Under the pieces are notes generated by a model. It saw nothing but the letters and a program-made list of their open reading frames with translations. It searched no databases and was not told the origin of the DNA. Positions 50,613 to 58,322 of a stretch of DNA of 64,000 bases are shown one piece after another. A program made the translations under genes and the position numbers. This stretch comes from Gemmatimonadota bacterium (GTDB lineage: Bacteria; Gemmatimonadota; Gemmatimonadetes; Longimicrobiales; Gaopeijiaceae), in assembly GCA_002724575.1 (NCBI GenBank), contig PBPC01000077.1, positions 1 to 64,000 of the forward strand, given 5' to 3'. Numbering within the stretch: position 1 is the stretch's first letter; each line of letters starts with the position of its first letter.

Positions 50613-51062
50613 ATGGGTACGGGAACCTTCGCAGCGGTAGTGATCGTTGGAGTGATGCTCTTATTGCTTATCTCGACTTTTATTCGTCAAAAGAAATCGG
50701 ACGAGGCAGCAATCCGACGAAAAGTAAGATCGACCCTTATAGAAGAGACGACTGGCGTCTCTATTAATGAGCGGCTAAAAGCGAAGAGGAAATCAATCTC
50801 GCGTCCTGAAAATGTTGATTTCTGTGAACTACGTTCTGCCAAGAGACTTGATCTGCCCGAGCGTGTGGATGGGTGGCTCGACCTTGAGGGCCTGACTACG
50901 TCGCGGGGACTGAAGCTACCTGAGCGGGTGGGCGGAGACATTTACTTCTGGTCCCTGTCCAAATCTGAGTACGACCGACTATCCCACGGCCCCGTTCGGA
51001 TGGGCGGCAAAGTCCGCTTCGAGCCGTTAGTCGACTACACTCAGCTTAGGTTCAGCAACTAG
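50613..51062 (+). CDS. Membrane-anchored hypothetical protein
   Basis: Single N-terminal TM 'FAAVVIVGVMLLLLISTFI' followed by charged region with repeated 'LDLPERVDGWLDLEGL/LKLPERVGGDIYFWSL' units. Confidence 0.55.
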   Translation: MGTGTFAAVVIVGVMLLLLISTFIRQKKSDEAAIRRKVRSTLIEETTGVSINERLKAKRKSISRPENVDFCELRSAKRLDLPERVDGWLDLEGLTTSRGLKLPERVGGDIYFWSLSKSEYDRLSHGPVRMGGKVRFEPLVDYTQLRFSN

Positions 51063-52732
51063 TTCCCCCCGAATAGTTCTCCGAAGAAATCCCCTGGGTT
51101 CCAGGTGGGCCGTGCCGTTTCCTGAGCTATGATGTAACCAGTCAAGAAGTTCACGCGAGTATGTGCAGCACCTGCTTCAAAATCGAAGCCTTGGTCAACC
51201 TCATCAAAGGGTGTGTGATACAGGTTTTGGCGGAACGCCGTATTGATCGCTCCACCATCTAAATTTGGATCCCCTGTCTCAAAACCGCTCTTGATGAACA
51301 GCGATGGAATGCCGCGTCTCACAAAACTGAAATGGTCACTCCGGATGAACAGGACCTGTTCGGGTATTGGATCCGGCCCGATCGCGAGTCCGAGATGTTC
51401 TGATGCAGCACGGACCGGTGAAGCCAGGGTCGAGTGTTCCGCCCCATATGGAACAATGTCCCGTAGCGGATGAAAGAGGAACGGCATATCTAAAGAGAAG
51501 CTCGCAACCAAGCTCGACCCGGGCATCGTCGGATTCTCAACGAAATAGTCAGAGCCGAGCAACCCCCACTCTTCTGCCGTCGGGATCAAAAACAGAACTG
51601 ACCGCCGAGGTTTCGTTTCCAGGCTCGCAAACGCCCGAGCGATCTCAAGGACAATCGCTGTCCCCGAAGCATTGTCATGGGCACCATTGTAGATGGCATC
51701 CCCTTCTACCTCGACCCCGATCCCAAAGTGATCAACATGGGCTATGTACACGACGTGTTCGTCGCGAAGCACGGGGTCACTTCCCTCAAGGCGTGCTATA
51801 ACGTTCCAGCTATCAACCCTGCGGTGACTACTCGTTGTACCGATCGACACCTGCGTCGCTAGATCAAATGCCTGTGGTGTGCTTTCCGCTGCTGCGCTGA
51901 AAGCTTCTTCAATGGGCTGTGGTGCTCCCGCAAAAAGCGCGCGAGCTGCAGGGTGGTTGAGGGAGGCCGAGCCCAGGATCGCCAGATCACCTCGGTTGGG
52001 ATTGCCGTCATCGTCGAGCCATGCAAAGCTCCCGCGTTTTGAGCGCGCTAGATTGACCTCCCATCGGAACCTCGGATCCCCCGGGTAGGTGAAGCTGAGA
52101 ATACCCACAGCGCCACGAGCTATCGCCTCACTCTGCTTCGTTGCCCCTGAGGAATAGTATGCTCTCTCATTACTGGGGAATGCTGGTGGTGCCCCAGTAA
52201 GATACGCCACGATTTTCCCTTCAACATCAATGTCGGCGTAGTCATCATAGCCAAGTCCGGGAGCACTGACTCCATACCCTACAAAAGCAACAGCGGCCTC
52301 GGAGACGCTCACGGTCTCCCGAAGAGGATCAGGGCTCAAGTAGAAATCCGCGCCGTATTCGAGTTCCTCAACACCGGAAGGCGAAAAGATCCGCATGCTG
52401 CTCCCTCTTTCGATCACAAGACTCTCACGAAGAGGGACAGGCTGTTGATACGTCCCATCAATACCCGCTGGATCCAACCCAAAGGCACTAAGAGATTCCT
52501 CCACATACTGGGCAGCTCCGCTGAAACCTCGGGTTCCTGGGGCTCTCCCCTCAAGAGAATCATCCGCGAGCACCCGGATATGATGGTCGATCGCCTCAGG
52601 CCGAATCTCGCCCAGAGCCGCCTCGACGCTAGGTGTATCGAGCGCTACGGCTTTTGACTGTTCTTGGCTTCCGCAACCAGTGAGGAGGAGAAAAACCGGG
52701 ATCTGCCACGCTATGGGAATGAATCGGTTCAT
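51059..52732 (-). CDS. M28-family peptidase lipoprotein
   Basis: Lipobox 'LLLTGCGS'; 'EHVVYIAHVDHFGIG...IYNGAHDNASGTAIVLEIARAFA', 'FLIPTAEEWGLLGSDYFVENP'. Confidence 0.9.
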   Translation of the reverse strand: MNRFIPIAWQIPVFLLLTGCGSQEQSKAVALDTPSVEAALGEIRPEAIDHHIRVLADDSLEGRAPGTRGFSGAAQYVEESLSAFGLDPAGIDGTYQQPVPLRESLVIERGSSMRIFSPSGVEELEYGADFYLSPDPLRETVSVSEAAVAFVGYGVSAPGLGYDDYADIDVEGKIVAYLTGAPPAFPSNERAYYSSGATKQSEAIARGAVGILSFTYPGDPRFRWEVNLARSKRGSFAWLDDDGNPNRGDLAILGSASLNHPAARALFAGAPQPIEEAFSAAAESTPQAFDLATQVSIGTTSSHRRVDSWNVIARLEGSDPVLRDEHVVYIAHVDHFGIGVEVEGDAIYNGAHDNASGTAIVLEIARAFASLETKPRRSVLFLIPTAEEWGLLGSDYFVENPTMPGSSLVASFSLDMPFLFHPLRDIVPYGAEHSTLASPVRAASEHLGLAIGPDPIPEQVLFIRSDHFSFVRRGIPSLFIKSGFETGDPNLDGGAINTAFRQNLYHTPFDEVDQGFDFEAGAAHTRVNFLTGYIIAQETARPTWNPGDFFGELFGGN

Positions 52733-52778
52733 GAAGACTGCCCCTCCTCTAAGAAAAATGCCGCCTGATTTCTTGAAA

Positions 52779-53000
52779 TCATTCGTTCTTTGTTCTCTGG
52801 CTGGACCGGGAACGTTGGTAAATCAGGGTGAAACAACCCCTCAAGATCATTAGGAATCCCACCCAGCCCCATACCTGCCCTGAGACTCCCTTGGGATCAG
52901 TAGCAAAACCCCAAGCTGTGGTCTCAGCAACCAGAAGACTTCCTAGACATATCAGGATGTAACCCGATCTGGTGGTCCCCTCATACCAAATCCTCTTCAC
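52779..53000 (-). CDS. Small two-TM hypothetical protein
   Basis: 73-aa ORF with two hydrophobic segments, same strand as and downstream of the MORN cassette. Confidence 0.4.
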   Translation of the reverse strand: MKRIWYEGTTRSGYILICLGSLLVAETTAWGFATDPKGVSGQVWGWVGFLMILRGCFTLIYQRSRSSQRTKNE

Positions 53001-53003
53001 TGC

Positions 53004-53330
53004 TTAGCAGGGGTCGTAAGTAACCGTCTCACCCCATTCCAACCACTCACCACACTTCTCGTTGTCTTTGTACATCCCCTTGTCCCGCAACTGGCCATTC
53101 TCGTGGTAACTCTCAAATAGTCCTTCCTGAACCCCATCCTTATAGGTCGTCTTCTCCCACAGCTGACCGTTGTCGAGATATATCTCTAGAGGTCCGTCTA
53201 TCTCACCATCCTTGTAGGTACCCTTAACTACTAACTGGCCCCCTTCGTAGTAAGTCTCAAAAGGTCCGTCAGGTGGCCCACCGCAGCTCACTACTAGCAC
53301 CAGACCGGCCAGCGATAGAATCCGGTTCAT
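53004..53330 (-). CDS. MORN-variant (YwqK-like) repeat lipoprotein, paralog A (3 repeats)
   Basis: Lipobox 'LVLVVSCGG'; 24-aa units such as 'YLDNGQLWEKTTYKDGVQEGLFES'; C-terminal cap 'KCGEWLEWGETVTYDPC'. Confidence 0.8.
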   Translation of the reverse strand: MNRILSLAGLVLVVSCGGPPDGPFETYYEGGQLVVKGTYKDGEIDGPLEIYLDNGQLWEKTTYKDGVQEGLFESYHENGQLRDKGMYKDNEKCGEWLEWGETVTYDPC

Positions 53331-53363
53331 CTCACTACTCCTTCAGGCTCCTCAACAGGGGTC
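53317..53363. repeat. 47-bp direct repeat copy 1 spanning a MORN gene junction
   Basis: agaatccggttcatctcactactccttcaggctcctcaacaggggtc, identical to 53950-53996. Confidence 0.9.
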
Positions 53364-53963
53364 GTAAGTAACTGTCTCACCATACTCCAACCACTCACCA
53401 CACTTCTCGTTGTCTTTGTACATCCCCTTGTCCCGCAACTGGCCATTATCGCGGTAGATCTCCCACAGTCCGTCTCTCTCTCCGTCCTTGTAGGTCGTCT
53501 TCTCCCACAGCTGACCGTTGTCATGGTACATCTCCCTTACTCCATCTAGCTCTCCGTCCTTCCAGGTCCCCTTCACCATCAACTGACCATTGTCGTGGTA
53601 CATCTCTCTCGGTCCATCGGGGTTGCCATCCTTGTACGTCTCCCTCGTCTTCAACTCCCCGTTTTCGTGGTAGGTCTCCCATGCTCCATCCAACTCCCCG
53701 CCCCTGTACCTCCCCCTTGTCCTCAACTCCCCGTTTTCGTGGTAGGTCTCAGATGCTCCGTCCAACTCCCCGTCCTTGTACCTCAACTTCAACAACAACT
53801 GACCATTCTCTTGGTACAACTCATATGGTCCGTTGAACTCGCCGTTCTTTAGGGCCCCCTGCGACTCCAACTGACCATTGTCGTAGTAACTCTCGAACGG
53901 TTCGCCTGTCGGGCTACACCCGACCATTAGAACAACACCGATCAGCGAGAGAATCCGGTTCAT
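53352..53963 (-). CDS. MORN-variant (YwqK-like) repeat lipoprotein, paralog B (7 repeats)
   Basis: Lipobox 'VVLMVGCS'; seven 24-aa units starting at 'YYDNGQLESQG'; same cap 'KCGEWLEYGETVTYDPC'. Confidence 0.82.
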   Translation of the reverse strand: MNRILSLIGVVLMVGCSPTGEPFESYYDNGQLESQGALKNGEFNGPYELYQENGQLLLKLRYKDGELDGASETYHENGELRTRGRYRGGELDGAWETYHENGELKTRETYKDGNPDGPREMYHDNGQLMVKGTWKDGELDGVREMYHDNGQLWEKTTYKDGERDGLWEIYRDNGQLRDKGMYKDNEKCGEWLEYGETVTYDPC

Positions 53964-53996
53964 CTCACTACTCCTTCAGGCTCCTCAACAGGGGTC
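53950..53996. repeat. 47-bp direct repeat copy 2 spanning a MORN gene junction
   Basis: Identical to 53317-53363. Confidence 0.9.
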
Positions 53997-54404
53997 ATAG
54001 GTGACCGTCTTGCCCTCAAACCACTCACCACACTTCCCTCCGTCATTGTAGGCACCCTTCTCATATAACTGACCGCTGTCGTAGTACTCCTCAACTGGTC
54101 CGTCCTCCACACCATCCTTGTAGGTCCCCTTCCTCCTCAACTGACCGTTGTCGTGGTAACTCTCAAACGGACCGTCCCACTTTCCGTCCCTTAGGGAACC
54201 GGTCATTCTTTTCCCCATGTTCTCCCCGAACACAGGACCAGAATAGGGTTGGCCGTCCTCTGGGTTTAGATACAACCCATCGACTCCTCGAAGAGTCCCC
54301 ATATCCCTCGGTTCCAGTTCTTGAAGAGTCTCCATATCCCGTGGTTCCGGTCCACCACACCCCACCACCAGAACCACACCAATCAACGAGAGAATCCGGT
54401 TCAT
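53985..54404 (-). CDS. MORN-variant (YwqK-like) repeat lipoprotein, paralog C (2-3 repeats)
   Basis: Lipobox 'VVLVVGCGG'; 'YHDNGQLRRKGTYKDGVEDGPVEE', 'YYDSGQLYEKGAYNDGGKCGEWFE'; cap 'KTVTYDPC'; AGGAGG upstream. Confidence 0.8.
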   Translation of the reverse strand: MNRILSLIGVVLVVGCGGPEPRDMETLQELEPRDMGTLRGVDGLYLNPEDGQPYSGPVFGENMGKRMTGSLRDGKWDGPFESYHDNGQLRRKGTYKDGVEDGPVEEYYDSGQLYEKGAYNDGGKCGEWFEGKTVTYDPC

Positions 54405-54427
54405 ACTTTACCTCCTAAGACCATCCA

Positions 54428-54459
54428 CCTTCTCAGATTACGTTGACCTCCTGAGAAGG
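54428..54459. repeat. 9-bp perfect inverted repeat upstream of MORN cassette
   Basis: CCTTCTCAG (54428-54436) / CTGAGAAGG (54451-54459). Confidence 0.7.
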
Positions 54460-54489
54460 ACCAGTTTCACCCTCCGGATGACCCTCAAA

Positions 54490-54532
54490 TATCCACCTTA
54501 TCCAGTTGGATAAGGTTTGGATAAGGTGGATA
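54490..54532. repeat. 14-bp perfect inverted repeat with an internal alternative 9-bp hairpin
   Basis: TATCCACCTTATCC (54490-54503) / GGATAAGGTGGATA (54519-54532); alternative ACCTTATCC (54495-54503)-AGTT-GGATAAGGT (54508-54516). Confidence 0.85.
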
Positions 54533-54564
54533 AGATCCAATGATACCAACGGTTTTCGGGCTAT

Positions 54565-57381
54565 CTACGGGTTGATCCAGTAGTTCACTTTAATCATCAA
54601 AACATTGTCTGCAGCAATGTTGAACATGTCATCTAGGTCCCTACCCAAATCGAAGGTTCCAACCCACCGCTCAGCTCCATCCTGTCCGTGACCCGTGATC
54701 GAGTTGATCCGACGCTGTTGCCACACAAGGAACAGTGTAGCTCCTGGCCTCCATTCCCACCGAAGCACTGCATTCCCCAGCAAGCTTCGGTAGCTAAAGT
54801 CCCGGTCAGAGACCCGGAAGTTGGCAGCGGGTCCGGCTCCGTCAGGGTCGATATTGTAACGCCCATCTTGGTCCTGAATTACCGTTCCCGCGTCTGTACC
54901 ATAATTCTGGAAGTCAAATGTTCCAGGGGACCGAAATTCTTTCAGTCCACCGTAGTCACCGACTGAGATGAAAGGTTCTACATACAATTGGAGGGAAAGC
55001 CTGGGCGAGAATGTGGCGTTCACTCTGGTCACCATTGAGAACCGTGTCCGGTCCAATTCACCAAACACATACCTGGAGCCAAAGGTCCCAACAGCAAAGG
55101 GGTCCTCAATCCGCTGCATGTATTGAGCTGTCGAATACGACCTGGTATAAGATGGCCCGAAGCTGAACTGCAAGGTCTCTCTGACACGCGCGTTCACATT
55201 CAGCTGTACACTCCTGTTCCAATCCCCGGCTTCGTTCGATCTCCATGAGTATGTGAGCCGGGGGACGACAGCTTTTCTTCCGTCTGAATTGAGATTCACA
55301 TTCCCGGCAAAGCTACCCGGCGAACGCGCCATGGGCCCACCTCTGGTCAAACGATCATCATCGGTCCAGGGATCGATCTGAACCCTCATCGAAGTGCGCC
55401 AGTAGTTAAGGAACTCAAATGAAAGACTACTGTTTACGTTTGCGAAGACCCGCTCACCTGCAAAATTCCAGACAGCGTCTGGACTAATGCTGACATTCCA
55501 GGACCGCAGAATCCTTCCGGGGTCTATCTCATTAAACTGGTAGTGCGTATCGAAGAGAATGCGGTCAGCATGCGACTGGAACCCGATATCATTGACCTCG
55601 AACCCTGGGCCCACGAATGCGATACCGTTCCGCATCGTGAACGTGCCCGCCTGTTTTCCGATATATCCCATCGCGTAATACCCAGTCAGAGATGTGGCGA
55701 ACGGATCCACCTCCAAGTGTCCAGCATCTGGTCTTTGATAGTAGCGGGCTGACGCACGTTGGGTGCGCAAAATTTGCTCTGCATCACCACGCACATAGCT
55801 ACCGGCCAGGGCTCCGCTAAAAAGCCACATCCGATCTGTCGATTCGTGGGCAAAATCGATTCCTCCGGAGTAGGCAGAGGAATGCAATCTGTTGACTAGT
55901 GTTGTTCCTGAGAGGTCACGGTTTACGGCTGTGCCTATCACACCAAACCGAGTGGCTCCTCCCTCTACCTGGCGGCGCAATCTCATAATGAAATTATTGG
56001 CTGCAGGCTCTACTAGAATTTCTTGAGATCTGCCATCAGCAGTCGTATAGGAACCCACCTCTGTTCCTGTAACCGCTTCCATAATTCCTAAGGACCAGCC
56101 ATTGCCAACTTGTCCCGTGACTTTGGCTGCCCCGAGGATCGTTGTGGCATTCGGCACCTGGGAAAAGATGGCATCCGAGGGAGTACGCCCTCTGGGCGAA
56201 CGACCAATTCTTCGTGAGTAGGCTAGCTGCGGTGGCCGGCCAACGCTTCCCATCGGCCCACCTTCACTAAAGCTGAAGATACCCGCTCCTTCCACGAAAA
56301 AAGCGCGTCTTTCAGAGAAGCGTGTCTCAAACGCTGTGAGGTTAATCACCGCTGGATCTAGCTCCACCTGCCCGAAGTCTGGATTAACTGTTGCATCCAA
56401 AGTCAGGTTGGATGCGAGTCGATATTTGAGATCCAGGCCTGCTCCTCCAAAATGATCTGCCCCGCTCCGGTATGGGTTATCAGGACCCAGGCCACCACGC
56501 TTTTCACTTGGCCCGTACTCTCCACGAGCAACAATATACGGGAGCATTTCTAAGCGCTGACCGGGCTGTATCCCTTCGATCCCATGCAGATGACCGAATC
56601 TAGATACCCCTGAGCGTTCTAGGTTCGGAGTAAACGGGAAGGTGGCATTCTCTTGATTCCGATGAATGTTCCGTTCGATCTGGACTCCCCAAACCTGTTG
56701 TTCTTCTGGGCTAAACCGGAGCTGACTGAAAGGGATGCGCATTTCTACAACCCACCCCGAATCAGAAACAGAAGTCGCTAGCTCCCACACCGGATCCCAC
56801 GACGTATCGCCTCTGCCGGTTCCATTCCTGCTTACTGTCGCATCACCTTTCACCCCGGAAGGGTTGGTCCAAAAACGGTAACCGGTTTCGTGATCGTGAT
56901 AACTGTCGATCAGAAATACAAATAAATCTGAATCACCCAATTGAGCATCACGACGTGCTAATCTCGTTGTCACTGGATTCCGATCAGTGAGCTGAGCACC
57001 GATGTAAATCGCATCTTCGTCATAGACGATGCGCACCTCAGTCCTCTCACTTACGGGCTCACCCTCGAATGGCAAAGTCTGGAGAAAGTCTGAAATCGGC
57101 GATACTTGGGACCAAACCCCCTCTTCGAGAAATCCATCAACCGTTAACGGTTCGTCCGCTTGAACTGCTTGGGCGATCGGCGCTGACTCATGATCATAGC
57201 CACCATCCACATCACTACCCTGCCGGTCTTGCTCAACCTGTGATGCCGAGGCTGGCAAAGAAGTCAGAGCCAGGATACCGAGCAAGGTAGAGGTCACCAG
57301 CGAGTGAGACCAAGGGCGCATGATCTTATCGATGAGGATGAAGGTGGGCGTCAGAATGTTCTTGCAGGATGTGAAGTACAA
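54565..57381 (-). CDS. DUF5916/CBM9-type outer-membrane-associated protein, second paralog
   Basis: 'LTVDGFLEEGVWSQVSPISDFLQTLPFEGEPVSERTEVRIVYDEDAIYIGAQL', 'NPDFGQVELDPAVINLTAFETRFSERRAFFVEGAGIF'; likely true start at 57321 (MRPWSHSL, signal peptide). Confidence 0.88.
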   Translation of the reverse strand: MYFTSCKNILTPTFILIDKIMRPWSHSLVTSTLLGILALTSLPASASQVEQDRQGSDVDGGYDHESAPIAQAVQADEPLTVDGFLEEGVWSQVSPISDFLQTLPFEGEPVSERTEVRIVYDEDAIYIGAQLTDRNPVTTRLARRDAQLGDSDLFVFLIDSYHDHETGYRFWTNPSGVKGDATVSRNGTGRGDTSWDPVWELATSVSDSGWVVEMRIPFSQLRFSPEEQQVWGVQIERNIHRNQENATFPFTPNLERSGVSRFGHLHGIEGIQPGQRLEMLPYIVARGEYGPSEKRGGLGPDNPYRSGADHFGGAGLDLKYRLASNLTLDATVNPDFGQVELDPAVINLTAFETRFSERRAFFVEGAGIFSFSEGGPMGSVGRPPQLAYSRRIGRSPRGRTPSDAIFSQVPNATTILGAAKVTGQVGNGWSLGIMEAVTGTEVGSYTTADGRSQEILVEPAANNFIMRLRRQVEGGATRFGVIGTAVNRDLSGTTLVNRLHSSAYSGGIDFAHESTDRMWLFSGALAGSYVRGDAEQILRTQRASARYYQRPDAGHLEVDPFATSLTGYYAMGYIGKQAGTFTMRNGIAFVGPGFEVNDIGFQSHADRILFDTHYQFNEIDPGRILRSWNVSISPDAVWNFAGERVFANVNSSLSFEFLNYWRTSMRVQIDPWTDDDRLTRGGPMARSPGSFAGNVNLNSDGRKAVVPRLTYSWRSNEAGDWNRSVQLNVNARVRETLQFSFGPSYTRSYSTAQYMQRIEDPFAVGTFGSRYVFGELDRTRFSMVTRVNATFSPRLSLQLYVEPFISVGDYGGLKEFRSPGTFDFQNYGTDAGTVIQDQDGRYNIDPDGAGPAANFRVSDRDFSYRSLLGNAVLRWEWRPGATLFLVWQQRRINSITGHGQDGAERWVGTFDLGRDLDDMFNIAADNVLMIKVNYWINP

Positions 57382-57542
57382 TATGAGCGTTTACCTAGCA
57401 GGTAACGGTACTTGAGCGGCGGAGAACCTCCAACGGGTAGGCCTATCCGCGCAACCTAGTTAGGGCAACTAGGAACTCCTGACAGCTCACTTGTCCTAAG
57501 CAGGTTGTGCACACTTCATCTTAACTGGGCTAGGTTTTTGGA

Positions 57543-58322
57543 ATGAACACAGATGTCGCACTCATTGCAGTCTCAGGCCTGTTCGTCGTGTTGGGCTCAA
57601 TGACCCTGCTTTGGCTCATCAGCTTACGGCTCAAAGACGCTAGCATAGTGGATCCGTTTTGGGGCCCGGGCTTTGCAATAGTAGCGGCTACTTACTACCT
57701 CGTAGACGGCAGATATCTGAGCCGCGGTACTCTGATTTTAGTCCTTGTCACTCTCTGGGCGGCCCGCCTTGGCTACCACCTATATGTTCGAAATAGGCGG
57801 GAGGGTGAAGATCCGCGCTACACAGCCATGCGAAAGGCCCGTGGAAAGCAATTTCCGTTGATTAGCCTGTTCACCATTTTCTGGTTTCAAGCCTTTCTAC
57901 TGTGGGTGATATCCTCACCCATCCTCGGCTCTATAGCCTCACAGGCACCGCTCGGATTCTTTGATATTCTTGGGTCGCTTGTGTTCTTAATCGGGCTAAC
58001 CATCGAATCGATTGCCGACAACCAGCTCACTTTGTTCCGGTCTGTGCCCGCCAACAAAGGTCACGTACTCGACACAGGATTGTGGCGTTATAGCAGGCAT
58101 CCAAACTATTTCGGTGAAGCTATGCTCTGGTGGGGGCTTTATTTGATGGCTGTTGCTGCTGAAGCCTATTGGACTATCGTGGGACCTGCCCTAATTACCT
58201 TCCTACTCCTGCGCTTCTCGGGGGTCCCGATGCTTGAAGAGGGGTTGCGCGCCTCGCGGCCTGGCTACGCCGAATACATCAAACGAACATCTTCGTTTTT
58301 TCTCTGGCCCCCGAAGAACTAG
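57543..58322 (+). CDS. DUF1295 membrane protein (steroid 5-alpha-reductase-like)
   Basis: 'WAARLGYHLYVRNRREGEDPRYTAMRKA', 'GLWRYSRHPNYFGEAMLWWGLYL', 'RPGYAEYIKRTSSFFLWPPK'. Confidence 0.9.
   Translation: MNTDVALIAVSGLFVVLGSMTLLWLISLRLKDASIVDPFWGPGFAIVAATYYLVDGRYLSRGTLILVLVTLWAARLGYHLYVRNRREGEDPRYTAMRKARGKQFPLISLFTIFWFQAFLLWVISSPILGSIASQAPLGFFDILGSLVFLIGLTIESIADNQLTLFRSVPANKGHVLDTGLWRYSRHPNYFGEAMLWWGLYLMAVAAEAYWTIVGPALITFLLLRFSGVPMLEEGLRASRPGYAEYIKRTSSFFLWPPKN

What the first reader, a model, noticed from the sequence alone, without database searches (positions are those of the whole stretch)
53004..54404. Tandem cassette of three MORN/YwqK-like lipoproteins with variable repeat number and a fixed two-Cys cap
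Seen: three consecutive lipoprotein genes share signal peptide 'MNRILSL(I/A)G(V/L)VL', 24-aa (72-bp) repeats present 3, 7 and 2-3 times, and the same C-terminal cap 'KCGEW.E..(E/K)TVTYDPC'. Known: the YwqK group of MORN-variant repeats includes a putative antitoxin in Bacillus, but no partner toxin gene is seen here. Inference: an expanding surface-protein array, with repeat-number changes through recombination, possibly recognising other cells, phage or polymers, or giving immunity to a secreted effector encoded elsewhere.
Basis: partly seen in the sequence, partly recalled or inferred. Interest (0 to 1): 0.66.

Follow-up and report, generated by a model that had tools for sequence, protein, structure and literature searches.

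The report
Tandem MORN-repeat lipoproteins with two-cysteine cap
A marine Gemmatimonadota bacterium carries three neighbouring copies of a repeat-built, membrane-anchored protein that belong to a family of at least twelve related genes spread over its genome; this is a clade-specific version of a known but poorly understood protein family, probably an envelope scaffold or binding protein rather than an antitoxin.

Summary
Three minus-strand lipoprotein genes (139, 203 and 108 aa) carry 2-3, 7 and 3 MORN_2 repeats, identical 21-bp spacers and a C-terminal CGEW…TYDPC cap. They belong to a family of at least 12 MORN_2 genes on eight contigs of this MAG, a marine Gemmatimonadota genus; 11 have the cap. 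At the same site, with the flanking genes conserved, a congener has one gene, and its 139-aa ortholog lies about 69 kb away. So gene copy number and position do vary. Repeat number mostly does not: six orthologous groups keep their length across the genus (one group gained or lost one repeat), and the 72-bp units in the window are mostly 55-79% identical. Pairwise dN/dS (about 0.07-0.24) indicates purifying selection. No YwqJ deaminase was found in 39 genomes, no VgrG in the genus and only one marginal RHS hit, so the antitoxin reading lacks support. AlphaFold gives a confident single-layer β-sheet (pLDDT 93) matching MORN1. Most likely these are lipid-anchored MORN_2 scaffold or binding proteins with a fixed capped end, amplified by tandem duplication and ectopic copying. 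Function is inferred. Known kind, clade-specific variant, modest interest.

The parts
53985..54404 (-). MORN_2 lipoprotein gene 'A139' (139 aa): lipobox signal peptide, non-repeat N-terminal part, 2 canonical + 1 degenerate repeat, cap
   Evidence: closest relative is G004:C19:56681-57100 at a different site (93.5% DNA identity)
53352..53963 (-). MORN_2 lipoprotein gene 'B203' (203 aa): lipobox signal peptide, 7 repeats, cap
   Evidence: AlphaFold model pLDDT 93.4
53004..53330 (-). MORN_2 lipoprotein gene 'C108' (108 aa): lipobox signal peptide, 3 repeats, cap; ortholog of the single gene at this site in G004
53964..53984 (-). 21-bp spacer A139-B203, with GGAG ribosome-binding-like sequence
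   Evidence: identical to the next spacer
53331..53351 (-). 21-bp spacer B203-C108
   Evidence: identical to the previous spacer
53988..54032 (-). two-Cys cap of A139 (CGEWFEGKTVTYDPC)
53355..53402 (-). two-Cys cap of B203 (CGEWLEYGETVTYDPC)
53007..53054 (-). two-Cys cap of C108 (CGEWLEWGETVTYDPC)
54405..54564 (-). leader upstream of the array; with the signal-peptide start it recurs only at the two array sites in the genus genomes; two predicted hairpins
54565..57381 (-). conserved upstream neighbour: DUF5916 protein with CBM9-like domain (a paralog flanks the second array site)
52779..53000 (-). conserved downstream neighbour: 73-aa membrane protein, present in G002 and G004 at the same place
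51059..52732 (-). conserved downstream neighbour: M28 peptidase lipoprotein

Best explanation
The three genes are a tandem cluster of a lineage-expanded MORN_2 family in a marine Gemmatimonadota genus. Shown: each protein is a predicted lipoprotein with 24-aa MORN_2 units, the longest modelled with high confidence as a single-layer beta-sheet, ending in a fixed hairpin-like cap with two conserved cysteines; the family is dispersed, copy number at this site varies between species, and the proteins are under purifying selection. Inferred: after lipid anchoring in the cell envelope the beta-sheet is a rigid protein-interaction rod of repeat-set length, and the constant cap is its closing or pairing end (MORN1 proteins dimerise through their C-termini). 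The likely role is envelope scaffolding or binding of a partner or polymer. The array grew by unequal recombination between near-identical ends and spacers and by ectopic copying between two sites, not by fast repeat slippage.
For: MORN_2 matches. AlphaFold pLDDT 93.4, all-beta, Foldseek best hits Toxoplasma, Plasmodium and Trypanosoma MORN1, E 1e-7 to 1e-6. C-terminal dimerisation and protein-interaction role of MORN1 (PMC7725318). Cap complete in 74 of 89 Gemmatimonadota proteins hit by the cap model. Copy number 1 versus 3 at a syntenic site. Identical spacers and near-identical 3' ends. Leader and first codons at both sites only. A139 at site 1 here but site 2 in G004. dN/dS about 0.07-0.24. 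Precedent: tandem and multicopy MORN2 proteins in Fusobacterium, mostly with signal sequences, found in outer membrane vesicles (PMC12940168; PMC10434195).
Against: No partner, localisation or expression is shown. Some family members have no lipobox: signal-peptidase-I type, membrane-anchored, and one group with a zinc-ribbon-like N-terminus and no signal peptide that still keeps both cap cysteines. So the envelope role cannot hold for all members and a disulfide is not required in all. Copy number comes from MAGs with contig breaks at these genes.
Confidence: 0.55

Rival explanations
1. YwqK-like antitoxin or immunity proteins: each copy neutralises a secreted or delivered toxin encoded elsewhere.
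For: MORN_2/YwqK name; ywqJ-ywqK is listed as a putative polymorphic toxin-antitoxin pair in B. subtilis (PMC8321402); YwqK-family genes next to VgrG in T6SS of some endosymbionts (PMC8163844); tandem copies with shared ends are usual in immunity arrays (own knowledge).
Against: No YwqJ deaminase in 39 genomes although the control found B. subtilis; no VgrG in five genus genomes; RHS absent in four, one marginal hit in G003; neighbours at the sites read are not toxins and differ from site to site; low dN/dS.
Confidence: 0.1
2. A rapidly varying surface-recognition array: repeat and gene number change by recombination to vary binding to phage, other cells or polymers.
For: Gene number and content differ between species at one site; degenerate and truncated copies at site 2; contigs repeatedly break inside these genes, as expected if near-identical or variable copies exist.
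Against: Orthologs at other loci keep their length (361, 142, 147, 123 aa); unit divergence is old; purifying selection and no sign of diversification; no recombinase belongs to the array (the one in G004 has no close relative in any other genome searched).
Confidence: 0.2
3. Cell-wall or division-associated envelope proteins, helping peptidoglycan hydrolase complexes.
For: MORN-variant and YwqK proteins copurify with FtsX and EnvC in Fusobacterium nucleatum (PMC5915739).
Against: No linkage to division or cell-wall genes at any site seen.
Confidence: 0.1
4. Assembly artefact: collapsed or mis-joined copies from different sites or strains.
For: Short-read MAGs; contigs in relatives end in or next to these genes; G002 has an N gap in the array.
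Against: The window contig is 147 kb and runs through the array; the copies are divergent enough to assemble; frames intact; C108 and its flanks are collinear with G004 and G002.
Confidence: 0.05

Closest known systems
MORN_2 (Pfam PF07661) / YwqK-type proteins
   Same: Same repeat; all three proteins above the family cut-off
   Different: The two-Cys cap lies outside the 22-position repeat model; no YwqJ partner
MORN2 proteins of Fusobacterium nucleatum
   Same: Multicopy, tandem, 1-27 repeats, mostly exported, found in outer membrane vesicles
   Different: Other phylum; presence of the cap there was not tested; there near type V autotransporters, here near DUF5916 and M28 genes
LIC20035 family adhesin (NCBIfam NF033566, Leptospira by name)
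   Same: Best NCBIfam match, MORN-like repeats (46.5 bits)
   Different: Far below the curated cut-off of 250; not a member
MORN1 of Toxoplasma, Plasmodium and Trypanosoma
   Same: Best structural matches, TM about 0.45-0.6; sheet built of two strands per repeat
   Different: Eukaryotic, intracellular, 17-19% identity
Engineered OspA single-layer beta-sheet
   Same: Weak sequence and structure similarity; a surface lipoprotein with a single-layer sheet
   Different: No homology claim; designed repeats

Membership tests
MORN_2 (PF07661) | score over Pfam gathering cut-off 29.6 bits | tested here: met
   57.2, 111.6 and 40.4 bits
YwqK antitoxin of the YwqJ-YwqK system | YwqJ deaminase toxin in the genome | tested here: not met
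   0 of 39 genomes with PF14431, control positive; LXG itself not searched
YwqK antitoxin of the YwqJ-YwqK system | neutralises a toxin | not testable with these tools
   needs co-expression assay
T6SS-linked YwqK proteins | VgrG gene in the genome or next to the gene | tested here: not met
   no TIGR03361 match in five genus genomes
LIC20035 adhesin (NF033566) | NCBIfam cut-off 250 bits | tested here: not met
   31.6, 46.5, 19.7 bits
known anti-phage defence | match to a PADLOC model | tested here: not met
   no match at E 0.01
capped MORN_2 subfamily defined here | CxxW...C cap in the last half repeat | tested here: met
   all three; 74 of 89 Gemmatimonadota proteins hit by the cap model
bacterial lipoproteins | signal peptide with lipobox and Cys+1 | tested here: met
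   by eye from sequence: LVVGC, LMVGC, LVVSC; no predictor was run
surface-exposed lipoproteins | location on the outer leaflet | not testable with these tools
   needs protease shaving or microscopy

The most novel reading that the evidence does not exclude
The two-Cys cap is a common docking or pairing head shared by about ten proteins per cell in different compartments (lipoproteins, periplasmic, membrane-anchored and zinc-ribbon cytosolic forms), while repeat number sets reach: a molecular-ruler family expanded in small-genome marine Gemmatimonadota.
Probability: 0.12. Interest if true: 0.55.

Novelty: new variant of a known kind. Interest (0 to 1): 0.3.

Why it matters
MORN_2 proteins are widespread, are often labelled antitoxins by name, and have no proven function in most bacteria. 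This family gives a counter-example to that label: many copies, no YwqJ toxin, purifying selection. It also gives a clear structural handle, the two-Cys cap, that can be tested. If the lipoproteins turn out to be envelope scaffolds, the same may hold for the expanded MORN2 sets of Fusobacterium.

Tried and rejected
Genome-wide scan with the broad cap alignment failed for lack of a conserved stretch; a narrower one worked. A first narrow alignment (A2) had a few residues typed in where one relative reads X; it was discarded unused and replaced by A3. A tyrosine recombinase between two copies in G004 (57403-58314) looked like a shuffling enzyme, but other genomes have only distant Xer-like matches, so it was dropped as a one-off insertion. 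Rfam found nothing in the leader; leader folding is not exceptional (z -1.88). Low dS of A139 (0.17) suggested recent transfer, but M28 and DUF5916 paralog 2 are also low (0.27, 0.26), so it is not special to the array. AlphaFold model of the DUF5916 neighbour failed (pLDDT 29). Viral contigs hold MORN_2 proteins, none capped among 13 read. An early 361-aa dN/dS run was off frame and was replaced.

Full report
Observation. Three consecutive minus-strand genes at 53004-54404 encode proteins of 139, 203 and 108 aa in order of transcription. All match Pfam MORN_2 above its cut-off. Tandem Repeats Finder reports the 72-base period inside the middle gene. In protein coordinates the units are spaced exactly 24 aa: 2 canonical plus one degenerate, 7, and 3. 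All three begin with MNRILSL and a lipobox and end with the same cap. The spacers between genes are 21 bp and identical, and the last 90 bases of the 203-aa and 108-aa genes agree at 84 positions, while the 139-aa gene is more distant there.

Family. The genome (a 2.4 Mb MAG in 100 contigs, 88.7% complete) holds at least 12 MORN_2 genes on eight contigs: three here, C67 (361-aa class, about 13 repeats, uncapped), C14, C78, C22 twice, C25, C71 twice and C8. Named records found with the family place relatives in marine Gemmatimonadota MAGs (UBA7889, UBA1120, UWMA-0308; 'marine' rests partly on my own knowledge of these MAG series). The four other genomes of the genus held carry similar sets. The cap model matches 39 of 298 genomes of the phylum, nearly all in the same family; some of these are partial matches. 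Full-length caps are most numerous in this genus (about 8-12 per genome, my count from the listed rows) and in a related genus with 2.0 Mb genomes.

Variation. Between the upstream DUF5916 gene and the downstream 73-aa membrane protein plus M28 peptidase, G004 has only the 108-aa gene. G002 has an array start, an N gap and a 108-aa-like gene. G003 has a short, apparently frameshifted first copy and its contig then ends at the spacer. G001's contig ends inside the DUF5916 gene. The 139-aa gene of the window has its closest relative in G004 about 69 kb away, downstream of a DUF5916 paralog, where a second leader and a degenerate copy also lie; in that degenerate copy the signal-peptide start is joined to the cap region at a TGTGGT microhomology. 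G002 also has a 139-like end at the start of contig C44, which by gene content continues that second site. The leader with the first codons is found only at these two sites in the genus genomes searched. So gene number and position change by recombination and ectopic copying. Repeat number is stable elsewhere: the 361-aa class (360-361 aa in five genomes), and the 142-, 147-, 123-, 114- and 160-aa groups keep length; the 130-aa group has one extra repeat in G003. Units within the 203-aa gene are mostly 55-79% identical in DNA; only its last unit is 90% identical to that of the 108-aa gene.

Selection. NG86 between G000 and G004 gives dN/dS of about 0.07-0.24 for seven MORN_2 genes, similar to neighbours (hemH 0.08, M28 0.10, DUF5916 0.08). 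These are pairwise averages and would miss selection on few sites.

Structure. AlphaFold2 on the 203-aa protein, with an alignment of 17 sequences, gives pLDDT 93.4 and an all-beta chain of paired strands. Foldseek best matches are MORN1 proteins of three parasites, which dimerise through their C-termini and act as protein-protein interaction modules (PMC7725318). The cap is predicted as the last hairpin (strands 186-193 and 196-199), with the cysteines at 188 and 203. A group with a zinc-ribbon-like N-terminus and no signal peptide keeps both cysteines, which argues against a purely oxidative role.

Function. No YwqJ deaminase was found in 39 genomes, and no VgrG and essentially no RHS in the genus; neighbours are unrelated from site to site. 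The nearest functional precedents are the expanded MORN2 proteins of Fusobacterium, exported and found in vesicles, with adhesion roles proposed but, according to PMC10434195, not experimentally proven, copurification of two MORN proteins with FtsX/EnvC (PMC5915739), and a weak match to a Leptospira-type adhesin family. The best-supported reading is an envelope scaffold or binding protein family; the partner is unknown.

Limits. Nearly all genomes used are draft MAGs. Several contigs in the genus and in G143 start or end within these genes, so counts are minima and array structure in relatives is partly unresolved. Only five genomes of the genus are held, and no strain-level or read data could be used. 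Lipoboxes and signal types were judged by eye. The search for the cap outside the phylum used narrow peptide patterns, so absence elsewhere is not proven.

Noticed in passing
L016:6705-7097 (G000:C78), also G001, G003, G004, G018, G147: A MORN_2 group with an N-terminal CxxC...CPxCG zinc-ribbon-like motif and no signal peptide keeps both cap cysteines.
   Followed up: partly
L014:6740-7822 (G000:C67): Uncapped MORN_2 protein of about 13 repeats with nearly the same length (360-361 aa) in all five genus genomes.
   Followed up: partly
L103:9404-10315 (G004:C19:57403-58314): A tyrosine-recombinase-like ORF sits between two array leaders in G004 only; distant Xer-like matches elsewhere.
   Followed up: yes
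window 54428-54532 (minus strand): Two predicted hairpins in the leader (TTATCCACCTTATCC...GGATAAGGTGGATA and CCTTCTCAG...CTGAGAAGG), largely kept at the other array sites.
   Followed up: partly
G002:C43 and G004:C45 (L062, L063): MORN_2 genes also lie next to or near a third DUF5916 paralog, a possible functional association.
   Followed up: no
L135:3812-6370: A SAR116-labelled single-cell genome has tandem MORN_2 genes with a shared signal peptide; the first ends in a different C-terminal Cys pair (ISCKGQNC).
   Followed up: no
contig ends in G000:C25, G001:C19, G002:C44, G003:C29, G003:C9, G004:C43, G143:C84, G143:C15: Contigs often start or end within or right after MORN_2 genes, suggesting these genes break short-read assembly.
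   Followed up: partly
M28 and 73-aa genes versus DUF5916, window 51059-57381: dS to G004 changes along the locus (about 0.25 downstream of the array, 0.71 upstream, 0.84 in the 108-aa gene), which suggests recombination between species here.
   Followed up: no
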